NCBI GenBank assembly: GCA_011772425.1
Contig: WVZO01000163.1
Coordinates: forward strand, 1-35,864
Direction: 5' to 3'
Length of the DNA: 35,864 nucleotides
From: Candidatus Aminicenantota bacterium
Lineage (GTDB): Bacteria > Acidobacteriota > Aminicenantia > UBA2199
Shown: positions 8,028 through 27,774 of the stretch, in pieces
Layout of the letters: each line of letters starts with the position of its first letter
Position numbering within the stretch: position 1 is the first letter of the stretch
Notes under the pieces: model-generated
Database searches by the model: none
The model's input: only the letters and a program-made list of their open reading frames with translations
Told to the model about the DNA's origin: nothing
Program-made: the position numbers and the translations under genes

Positions 8028-9257
8028 ATGAGTTTTAAAAAAATTTGTTTTATTCTTTGTGTTTTTTCAATCGTTTTTTTTATCGCCGGGGTGAATGATT
8101 CTCTTTCTGCCCAGAAAAGCGGTAAAATTGTGTATTCCACGAAAGGCACGGGTTATAAAATTTGGGTCATGAATGAAGATGGTACCGATTGCCTTCAGTT
8201 AACCTATGGACCTGGTGCCGATAGAAATCCTGAATGGTCACCGGATGGTAGTAAAATTGCTTTTAGTTCCAATAGAGATTCGGGCTATTTAAATGAAATA
8301 TTTGTAATGAACGCAGATGGGACAAATATACAAAAAGTAGTGTCTATTTCCAGTGCCAATTGTGCAGGTCAGGAATGGACCCCAGACGGTAAAAAACTTG
8401 GTTTTACAGTAAATTTCGGTTCCAACAATAATTGCATATATTGGGTTAACGTGGATGGAACAGGGCTTGAGCCTATTTATGATGCCCACTCAAAAGTTGA
8501 TTTTTGTTCTTTTTCAGCGGATGGAAAAAAGATTCTTTTTATCCATTGGGGAAAACTTTATATAATGAATATAGATGGCACAGGCAAAACTCAAATTGCA
8601 AATGCTCAAAGAGCCGATTGGTCACCACATCAGAATTTGGTGGTTTATGTAGACCAAAGTACTTACCGGGATATTTGGATTGTTAATCCTGTCACTCTAG
8701 AAAGACAACAATTTACTTTTGAATATCCAACGAAAGAATTTTTTCTTGACCCAAAATGGTCATGGCCAGATGCTCAGAAAATTGTTTATAATAGAGCCGG
8801 AGATTTATGGATTATGAACAGTGATGGCAGCAACAAAATTCAATTGACATTTGATGGATTGAAAGGAGAAGGTTCTGGTGAGTTATATTATTTTGATATA
8901 GAAATTCAAGCTCTCATCGATATAAAACCGGAAACCCTGAACCGAAAAAGTAAGGGCAAATGGGTAACAGCCTATATTGAATTACCCGAAAGCTATGACG
9001 TAGGAGAGATTGACCTTAACTCAATTGTCATTATAGCTGTGGATGAAATTATACTGGATGAACCCCTTTATGCAGAACCATCTCCAACGAAAATCGATGA
9101 CTACAATGCAAACGGCATACCGGATTTGATGGTCAAATTTAACAGGAGATCTCTGATTGAATTGTTAAGTCCCGGAGTCCATAACATTTCGATATCAGGG
9201 AATTTAAACGATGGAACAATCTTTGAGGGTAATGATACACTGAAAGTTATTCACTGA
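8028..9257 (+). CDS. Exported PD40/TolB-like beta-propeller protein
   Basis: A 409-residue protein with a signal peptide over the first ~28 residues. The next ~260 residues carry WD40-like PD40 repeats: MNEDGTDCLQLT, EWSPDGSKIAFSS, MNADGTNIQKV, WTPDGKKLGF and MNSDGSNKIQLTF. They end in a C-terminal segment beginning IDIKPETLNRKSKGKW, a pattern often found as a small beta-sandwich module after such propellers. TolB-type propellers mediate protein contacts in the periplasm; the partner is unknown. The gene is monocistronic, has a perfect AGGAGG and is preceded by a sigma-54 promoter, so expression should depend on an enhancer-binding activator. A hairpin lies about 90 bp after the stop. Confidence 0.85.
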   Translation: MSFKKICFILCVFSIVFFIAGVNDSLSAQKSGKIVYSTKGTGYKIWVMNEDGTDCLQLTYGPGADRNPEWSPDGSKIAFSSNRDSGYLNEIFVMNADGTNIQKVVSISSANCAGQEWTPDGKKLGFTVNFGSNNNCIYWVNVDGTGLEPIYDAHSKVDFCSFSADGKKILFIHWGKLYIMNIDGTGKTQIANAQRADWSPHQNLVVYVDQSTYRDIWIVNPVTLERQQFTFEYPTKEFFLDPKWSWPDAQKIVYNRAGDLWIMNSDGSNKIQLTFDGLKGEGSGELYYFDIEIQALIDIKPETLNRKSKGKWVTAYIELPESYDVGEIDLNSIVIIAVDEIILDEPLYAEPSPTKIDDYNANGIPDLMVKFNRRSLIELLSPGVHNISISGNLNDGTIFEGNDTLKVIH

Positions 9258-9347
9258 TTTATTCATAACAGGAATTCAATGGATGAGTCCGGGTTTTAAC
9301 AGGCTGTCCTTAGTGAATGGAGTGGATGTGAAGGGAGTTATTGGGAA

Positions 9348-9397
9348 CGCGTCTCAACATTGGATGTTCAGGGTTCAATGTTCAAGGTTGGGACGCG
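9348..9397 (+). repeat. 15-bp stem inverted repeat downstream of PD40 gene
   Basis: Bases 9348-9362 pair with 9383-9397 (CGCGTCTCAACATTG with CAAGGTTGGGACGCG). There is one mismatch and one pair that is U-G only in plus-strand RNA. The loop holds GTTCAGGGTTCAATGTTCA words. There is no U-run, so it is not a standard terminator. Confidence 0.65.
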
Positions 9398-9432
9398 AAC
9401 CATTAAATGTAACTCCTATTGGAAAAAATTAA

Positions 9433-9540
9433 GCTTAGAAGTTGAGAAGTTGAGAAGTTGAGAAGATAAGAAGTTGAGAGAGAACTCGAAAAAAAAGCTC
9501 TTTTCGTTTTCTCAACCTCTCAACCTCTCAACTTCTAAGC
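9433..9540 (-). repeat. 32-bp inverted repeat built from 8-bp words (GAGAAGTT)
   Basis: Left arm 9433-9464 pairs with right arm 9509-9540. Thirty of 32 positions are Watson-Crick. The two exceptions (9448/9525, 9456/9517) are A-C in plus-strand RNA but G-U in minus-strand RNA. The left arm is a tandem of GAGAAGTT; the right arm is AACCTCTC. It lies just after the stop of the small minus-strand gene at 9574. Confidence 0.8.
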
Positions 9541-9573
9541 CTTGTCTTTAAGTATCTCTTTTAAATCGTACAT

Positions 9574-9873
9574 CTAACAGGCTTCCAGGTTTTCCATTTC
9601 TTCGAGCAACTGCTTCTTGTTTTCTACCAGGTAGCTCCAATCTATCCAATCATTGTGCTCTTGAAAGGTATCTCCCATTGTCTGCTCAAACTTATCAAGG
9701 GGCATTTGATATTTCTTTTCAAACCGTTTTATTTTCGACTCTGCCCGTTTTAATTCCTTACGGATTTCTTTTTTCTTCTGTTCAACAGCAATAGCAAAGG
9801 CTTTATAGACGATTTCATCCGGGATTTTCCCGGCATCGATATTACCTGGAATCTTGATCGTTGCTTCCGTCAT
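9574..9873 (-). CDS. Small helical antitoxin-like protein
   Basis: A 99-residue protein: a short beta start (TIKIPGNI), a long charged helix (residues ~25-55), then KKYQMPLDKFEQ and WSYLVENKKQLLEEM. This layout resembles a widespread family of small prokaryotic proteins often annotated as antitoxin components, in which a charged helix precedes a KYGM-xx-EEF motif. That similarity is from memory and no toxin is adjacent. The start is well supported: GTGAGGT Shine-Dalgarno and a consensus promoter at 9894-9922. It is convergent with the PD40 gene; the octamer hairpin sits in its 3' region. Confidence 0.6.
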   Translation of the reverse strand: MTEATIKIPGNIDAGKIPDEIVYKAFAIAVEQKKKEIRKELKRAESKIKRFEKKYQMPLDKFEQTMGDTFQEHNDWIDWSYLVENKKQLLEEMENLEAC

Positions 9874-9893
9874 ATTTATTACCTCACGGTTTA

Positions 9894-9922
9894 TTTATAA
9901 ATCTCAATGGCAAAAAAGTCAA
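9894..9922 (-). promoter_or_regulatory. Sigma-70 promoter for the small minus-strand gene
   Basis: On the minus strand: TTGACT (9917-9922), exactly 17 bases, TATAAA (9894-9899), with the ATG at 9873. Confidence 0.75.
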
Positions 9923-9990
9923 GTCGTTTTCTGATTTTATAGTCAGATTTTTGTCTCTTCTGTGCCTTTTATTCCCATGAGGCCCGTTCT

Positions 9991-10599: not shown

Positions 10600-10688
10600 A
10601 ATTATGAATGATGATTGATGAACTATGAAGTAACTTTTCATGGACTCTGGTAATCTGTCATCGATGGCAATTTTCATCATTCATAATT
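10600..10688. repeat. 15-bp perfect inverted repeat made of ATGAATG words
   Basis: AATTATGAATGATGA at 10600-10614 is the exact reverse complement of 10674-10688. Flanking bases on both sides continue the word pattern (GATGATTGATGAAC; CACAATTCATCATTT). It lies just downstream of two convergent genes, where a bidirectional 3'-end element would be. Confidence 0.7.
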
Positions 10689-10706
10689 CACAATTCATCA
10701 TTTATA

Positions 10707-11183: not shown

Positions 11184-11208
11184 AAAATCCCAAAAAGTTT
11201 AAAAAAAA

Positions 11209-11393
11209 TATTCCTGTTAAGACTTTTTTGTCCCCTTTCACCCGGAAAGTATTCCTGGGATGACGATTCTATTCCTACTGGTTTGAAAAATATTCCTGGG
11301 ACGACGTTTCTATTCCTTTCGGTTTGCAAAGTATTCCCGGGACGACGTTTCTATTCCTTTTGGTTTGAAAAGTATTCCTGGGAGGACTATTTT
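11209..11393. repeat. 41-bp tandem array, about 4.5 units, with a 20/21-bp internal period
   Basis: Units start at 11209, 11250, 11291, 11332 and 11373 (partial), each exactly 41 bp. The middle units read TATTCCTGGGACGACG, then TTTC, TATTCCT, then a GGTTTG-AAAG tail. The word TATTCC(T/C) starts at 11250, 11270, 11291, 11311, 11332, 11352 and 11373, alternating 20 and 21 bp, so every copy faces the same side of the helix. The 11209 unit is diverged in its second half. It lies between the sigma-54 activator's stop and the XRE start. Confidence 0.9.
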
Positions 11394-11443
11394 GAAATTT
11401 AAATTCTAAGCACGAAGCACGAAATCGCGCAGAGACCAAACAA

Positions 11444-27496: not shown

Positions 27497-27774
27497 GGTC
27501 TATCTCCCATCTCATGGTTTTTGATCTTTTTTGTCACAAAAATAAAAAACAAAAGACCCACTGATATATTTGTTTCCAATGTTTGTGCCTTTGTACCCTT
27601 GCATCCATATTAAATATATATCTTCATGTGTCTAAATCATTCTACACTGCTTAATGAACCTCATCGATATTGAAGAAAGCAATTTTTATGCCAGGGAAAT
27701 ATCCCGATTGTGTCTTAATTATAGGACACACTGTCCTTAGGACCAGGTCAGAGCCAAATGATGAATGATGAAAT
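27497..27774. other. Intergenic region between dxs and the S41 peptidase
   Basis: No gene seen. TGAAGAAAGCAATT (27670-27683) repeats the sequence at 24079-24092 that carries the cysteine synthase -35. AGGACA-CAC-TGTCCT (about 27723-27737) is a 6-bp hairpin. ATGATGAATGATGA words lie just after the dxs stop (about 27759-27772). Confidence 0.5.

What the first reader, a model, noticed from the sequence alone, without database searches (positions are those of the whole stretch)
9433..9540. Octamer-built 32-bp hairpin whose only mismatches are G-U on the gene-carrying strand
The arms are tandem 8-bp words. Two of 32 positions are not Watson-Crick, and both become G-U in RNA read from the minus strand, which carries the 3' end of the 9574-9873 gene. 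Random decay would give mismatches of any kind; this bias suggests selection on the RNA. It may be a 3'-end stabiliser, an attenuator or a mobile repeat kept for its fold.
Basis: partly seen in the sequence, partly recalled or inferred. Interest (0 to 1): 0.7.

Follow-up and report, generated by a model that had tools for sequence, protein, structure and literature searches.

The report
Octamer-armed hairpin repeat after genes
The hairpin is real and is one copy of a scattered DNA repeat whose two arms are rows of an 8-letter word; the "G-U only" pattern that suggested selection on its RNA disappears when about 80 other copies are examined, and in this genome the repeat sits where a neighbouring species still has a toxin gene.

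Summary
Observation confirmed: 9433-9464 pairs with 9509-9540, 32-nt arms, two mismatches, A·C on the + strand and G·U on the - strand. Both mismatches are the same column of one repeated word, so they are not independent. Interpretation: the G·U bias is not a rule. The element belongs to a dispersed class of hairpins with arms of tandem 7-9-nt words. GTTGAGRR arms recur in Bacteroidota, Planctomycetota, Verrucomicrobiota and Kiritimatiellaeota MAGs, always GTTGAG-arm first (261 matches against 0 in 16 genomes), usually a few nt after a stop codon. Two occupied/empty site comparisons show gain or loss of about 100 bp as a unit. In a sister species, the window's 99-aa gene is followed by a TumE toxin gene; in the window only 12 codons are left and the hairpin begins there and supplies the stop. 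Most likely a DNA-level quasi-palindromic repeat tolerated in non-coding gaps, not a terminator or a selected RNA. How it spreads is unknown; no link to RAYT transposases was found.

The parts
9433..9464 (+). 5' arm of the hairpin (+ strand): tandem octamers AGAAGTTG, 32 nt
9465..9480 (+). two further octamers continuing the + strand 5' arm, not matched by an equal length in the other arm
9481..9508 (.). loop core with an A/T-rich inner inverted repeat (AAAAGAGCTTTTTTTT on -); one other copy in the genome has a similar core (G000:C629:4841-4861)
9509..9540 (-). other arm; on the - strand it is the 5' arm GCTTAGAAGTTGAGAGGTTGAGAGGTTGAGAA, carrying the two G variants that give G-U on - and A-C on +
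9535..9573 (-). remnant of a tumE-like toxin gene: 12 codons MYDLKEILKDKA right after the 99-aa gene, then a TAG that lies in the first word of the hairpin; the rest of the gene is absent
9574..9873 (-). 99-aa gene; its orthologue in genus member G003 precedes an intact TumE-family gene, so it is probably the partner (antitoxin-like) protein; no family hit above cut-off itself
9350..9398 (.). second, separate hairpin: ends CGCGTCTCAAC / GTTGGGACGCG around GTTCAAT-type 7-mers
   Evidence: sequence; 7-mer array 9366-9389
8028..9257 (+). convergent neighbour, WD40-like beta-propeller (PD40) protein

Best explanation
The feature is a copy of a dispersed, DNA-level quasi-palindromic repeat. Its arms are tandem arrays of an octamer (GTTGAGRR read inward on either strand). 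It is gained and lost as a unit of about 100 bp in gaps between genes, typically right after a stop codon, and its arms then drift word by word. In the window it occupies the place of a lost TumE-type toxin gene downstream of the 99-aa gene. Shown: the hairpin, its dispersal in several phyla, the fixed arm order, the closeness to stop codons, presence/absence between relatives, equal G·U and A·C on the gene strand, and the tumE remnant. Inferred: that arms grow or are rewritten by slippage and template switching on a folded strand during replication, and that copies survive mainly because they land where they do little harm. Since the GTTGAG word puts a stop in every frame within 24 nt of entry, a copy landing near a gene end simply ends that reading frame.
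For: 158 sites with the word in tandem (up to 2 mismatches) in the host genome against 45 for the reversed-word control. The same hairpin pattern lies in Saprospiraceae, Chitinophagales, Flavobacteriia, Planctomycetota, Verrucomicrobiota and Kiritimatiellaeota records, with up to 71 matches per genome. Arm order GTTGAG-first 261, reverse order 0. Outer edge median about 4 nt after the upstream stop codon; 18 of 72 genes stop inside the arm. Occupied/empty pairs: L228 against L231, and L168 against L146. G·U 113 against A·C 121 on the gene strand, 11 against 10 in the core family. TumE gene intact in G003, cut after 12 codons at the hairpin in the window. No copy in 2.9 million viral contigs.
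Against: No transposase or other agent was found: 30 Y1_Tnp loci lack the repeat nearby. No target-site duplication was seen in the two empty-site comparisons. In the core family two-sided pair changes (10) exceed all 300 shuffles (mean 5.5), so something keeps the arms complementary; this fits arm-to-arm copying but also selection. Paired words agree slightly better than shuffled words (0.61 against 0.56, 43 of 1000 shuffles reach it) and neighbouring words in one arm are less alike (0.44), which simple slippage would not predict. In the host genome most arrays are one-sided and full hairpins are few.
Confidence: 0.62

Rival explanations
1. RNA-level element: a 3' hairpin that stabilises the mRNA of the upstream gene, or slows translation at its end as REPs close to a stop codon are reported to do.
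For: Position a few nt after the stop codon in Bacteroidota; very stable RNA fold; some covariation in the core family; REPs within 15 nt of a stop codon are reported to stall ribosomes (PMC12306157).
Against: No G-U excess on the gene strand; copies also between divergent genes, one with an empty orthologous site (L168); a copy inside an NRPS-like reading frame; in the window the hairpin starts 34 nt after the stop of the 99-aa gene and took the place of a gene.
Confidence: 0.18
2. Stop-in-every-frame cassette: words are kept because octamers carrying TGA/TAA/TAG put a stop in all three frames at both entrances, protecting against read-through.
For: GTTGAG-first order without exception; word variants keep a stop in 65 of 71 cases in the host genome and 32 of 35 in the other loci, 61% expected; one-sided arrays after a gene end carry the stop strand in sense 28 to 7.
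Against: Hairpins built of other words do not follow it: 11 word families richer in stops in the first arm, 5 poorer, 9 equal, p = 0.21, and the GTTATTG type goes the other way. Both arms are equally conserved although only one strand is translated in tandem contexts. The expectation of 61% ignores shared descent of words.
Confidence: 0.12
3. Transcription terminator serving the convergent genes on either side.
For: The window copy lies between convergent genes.
Against: No terminator-like site in 9200-9950; copies elsewhere are not enriched between convergent genes (8 of 71 against 80 of 441) nor depleted between divergent ones.
Confidence: 0.08

Closest known systems
REP / BIME palindromic repeats (GTAG- and CGTC-tagged families, PMC3733652)
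   Same: dispersed, extragenic, stem-forming, near gene 3' ends, many per genome in some lineages
   Different: arms are tandem octamers and over 30 nt; no unpaired GTAG or CGTC tag at the end; no RAYT gene found beside copies
TAACTGA heptamer arrays of Beggiatoaceae, Cyanobacteria and Bacteroidetes (PMC4679880)
   Same: short tandem word with a unit not divisible by three and stops in all frames; patchy spread over distant phyla without known mechanism
   Different: those are direct arrays, mostly just before start codons; here two arrays are inverted around a core to make a hairpin, mostly just after stop codons
Quasi-palindromes rewritten by template switching (general knowledge; not a tested membership)
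   Same: imperfect inverted repeat in which the arms may be kept alike by a DNA process
   Different: process not demonstrated here

Membership tests
REP (repetitive extragenic palindrome) | short palindrome, 20-40 bp | tested here: not met
   108 bp with 32-nt arms
REP (repetitive extragenic palindrome) | unpaired GTAG or CGTC tag at one end | tested here: not met
   flanks read TAAGCTTAG...CTAAGCCTTG, no tag
REP (repetitive extragenic palindrome) | associated RAYT (Y1 transposase) gene flanked by the repeat | tested here: not met
   30 Y1_Tnp loci in carrier genomes, none with the octamer array in about 1.5 kb
REP (repetitive extragenic palindrome) | extragenic and dispersed | tested here: met
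MITE / insertion element | presence/absence as a unit between relatives | tested here: met
   L228 against L231, L168 against L146
MITE / insertion element | target-site duplication and defined terminal inverted repeats | tested here: inconclusive
   no clear duplication in two diverged pairs; ends vary in word number
Rho-independent terminator | G+C-rich stem followed at once by a T run | tested here: not met
   no site in 9200-9950
Known structured RNA (Rfam 15) | match above gathering score | tested here: not met
   0 matches in the window
RNA structure under selection on the transcribed strand | G-U tolerated more than A-C | tested here: not met
   113 against 121; 11 against 10
RNA structure under selection on the transcribed strand | transcript ends or processing at the hairpin | not testable with these tools
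   no RNA-seq available

The most novel reading that the evidence does not exclude
An undescribed class of bacterial elements: hairpins with arms made of tandem 7-9-nt words, in which one conserved core can carry different words (GTTGAGRR, GTTGAARR, AGATGAA), the same words recur in distant phyla, the purine-rich stop-bearing arm comes first, and copies seat themselves at stop codons, spread by a process independent of known transposases.
Probability: 0.3. Interest if true: 0.72.

Novelty: new variant of a known kind. Interest (0 to 1): 0.45.

Why it matters
It shows that a striking mismatch pattern in one hairpin can be an accident of tandem words. It also points to a poorly described repeat architecture, word-built hairpins beside stop codons in several phyla, whose origin can be studied directly from the occupied/empty pairs found here. 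The window copy marks where a toxin gene was lost, leaving its probable partner alone.

Tried and rejected
RAYT/IS200-type mobilisation: no association. Virus-borne spread: none in viral contigs. Rfam: nothing. A shared loop core as a genome-wide family marker in the host genome: only two copies. Stop-codon cassette as a general rule: fails over all word families. Host-phylum inheritance: the strict hairpin pattern is absent from 198 other genomes of the phylum. Literature: no paper in the held library prints the word; searches on Saprospiraceae palindromes and octamer repeats gave nothing.

Full report
OBSERVATION. 9433-9464 pairs with 9509-9540, 32-nt arms, two mismatches, 44-nt loop. Folded as RNA it is very stable on either strand (z about -10), and random bases would give such an inverted repeat in this window about 1e-9 times. 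The two mismatches are A·C on + and G·U on -. Both are the same position of one word (GAGAAGTT against GAGAGGTT) in two successive copies, so they are not independent, and any A/G difference between arms must be G·U on one of the two strands. The pattern in this single hairpin therefore carries little information.

THE WORD IN THE HOST GENOME. The window lies in a 10.4-Mb, 768-contig assembly (G000). Its identity was not established here. GTTGAG-type octamer arrays are common in it: 158 places at up to 2 mismatches against 45 for the reversed control. They also occur in one sister species, but hardly in 39 other relatives. In 0.7 Mb fetched around such sites most arrays are one-sided; about eight form hairpins. 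One of these (L089, G000:C98) lies in a 3122-codon frame that I read as an NRPS adenylation region from its motifs (NLAYVIYTSGSTGKP follows). There the coding strand has A-bearing words in the first arm and C-bearing words in the second, so its mismatches are A·C on the coding strand, opposite to the window.

THE WORD ELSEWHERE. Single genomes hold up to 71 matches (overlapping registers of one hairpin are counted more than once). The opposite arm order gives none in the same 16 genomes. In three related genomes the arms enclose a conserved core, GGCTACCGC(G)AGCG...CGCT(C)GCGGTAGCC; other lineages have other cores. A scan that does not assume the word finds further hairpins with arms of other 7-9-nt words, sometimes around the same core, and 18 of 25 word families have more G than C in the first arm against 5 with fewer. 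The strict hairpin pattern is absent from 198 other genomes of the host phylum and from viral contigs.

TEST OF THE G·U CLAIM. For hairpins with exactly one gene ending into them, I aligned the two arms and counted mismatches on the gene strand: 86 G·U and 88 A·C in the first 56 hairpins, 113 and 121 in 82 (p = 0.65; 27 hairpins G·U-rich, 25 A·C-rich). In 29 members of the core family the counts are 11 and 10, while two-sided changes (10) exceed all 300 shuffles. So the arms tend to stay complementary, but not with the strand asymmetry that selection on RNA would leave. Gene calls were made by a simple longest-ORF method, which adds noise but no bias between the two mismatch types.

POSITION. 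In these loci the outer edge of the arm is a median of about 4 nt after the stop codon of the upstream gene, and 18 of 72 genes have their stop inside the arm. Neighbouring genes are mostly co-directional (53 of 71), with no significant departure from background for convergent or divergent pairs. One divergent case (L168) was checked by sequence, and its orthologous site in another genome is empty. This speaks against a terminator role; no terminator-like site lies near the window copy.

GAIN AND LOSS. In genomes about 92% identical in aligned blocks (L228 against L231) and about 85% identical (L168 against L146) the element is present in one and absent in the other, with about 95 and 107 extra bases. 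At one orthologous gap, one genome has a GTTGAG hairpin and the other a hairpin of GGTTCCAR words. No target-site duplication was evident. Thirty Y1-transposase loci of carrier genomes have no such array nearby.

THE WINDOW SITE. The orthologue of the 99-aa gene in genus member G003 is followed, with overlapping stop and start, by a 116-aa gene of the TumE toxin family (PF20126, E = 5.8e-20). In the window the same junction is present but the second frame has only 12 codons, MYDLKEILKDKA, and ends at a TAG that lies in the first word of the hairpin; the rest is absent. The short remnant is weak evidence by score alone (7 of 12 identical), but its start, frame and position agree. Other orthologues (G001, G013) lack the hairpin too. 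The hairpin is thus a local gain, not a conserved 3' structure of this gene.

MECHANISM. I favour a DNA-level quasi-palindromic repeat, with arms extended or rewritten by slippage and template switching, tolerated where it does little harm. Words with TGA, in units not divisible by three, give stops in all frames. This was noted for TAACTGA heptamers (PMC4679880) and would make landings near gene ends mild. In the host genome 65 of 71 word variants keep a stop, and one-sided arrays after a gene end carry the stop strand in sense 28 to 7. Over all word families this is not a rule (11 to 5 with 9 ties, p = 0.21), so I treat it as a possible filter and not as the function. A role in translation like that reported for REPs within 15 nt of stop codons (PMC12306157) is possible for the Bacteroidota copies, less so for the window copy, which starts 34 nt after the stop.

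KNOWN OR NEW. It resembles REP/BIME elements and short-word tandem arrays and shares features with both, but fails the defining REP features tested (size, tag, RAYT). I found no description of hairpins with tandem-word arms in the held library. I rate it a new variant of a known kind.

Noticed in passing
window 9350-9398: A second hairpin 35 bp away: CGCGTCTCAAC / GTTGGGACGCG ends around GTTCAAT-type 7-mers; its mismatch is also a T/C transition.
   Followed up: partly
window 9535-9573: Twelve-codon remnant of a TumE-family toxin gene; its probable partner (99 aa, 9574-9873) is left alone.
   Followed up: yes
L089 7904-8014 (G000:C98): Octamer hairpin in frame inside a 3122-codon NRPS-like frame; the sense arm that would carry TGA has TGG instead, the other arm codes SQPLNLSTSQLL.
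   Followed up: partly
window 10600-10622, 10673-10706 and 27757-27772: Heptamer arrays AATGATG and TTCATAA just outside genes; AATGATG also forms tandem-armed hairpins elsewhere.
   Followed up: no
window 11204-11394: 41-bp (82-bp) tandem repeat, 85% matching, AAAGTATTCCTGGGACGACGATTCTATTCC..., between a HTH gene and a sigma-54 activator gene.
   Followed up: no
L231 4160-4290 (G043): About 120-bp insertion absent in G042, with inverted ends GGGGC(G)A..AATAAGTGTTCATTTT, MITE-like.
   Followed up: no
L169 1740-1940 (G042) and L229 7580-7830 (G043): Same intergenic site holds hairpins of two different octamer words (GTTGAGRR and GGTTCCAR).
   Followed up: partly
L050-L089 (G000): Many other dispersed word arrays: CACAGAGGA/ACACAGAG, CACGAAGGA, GGCAGTTG, GCGAGGAA, and a longer repeat around GGGGTCCAGGGGGC.
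   Followed up: no
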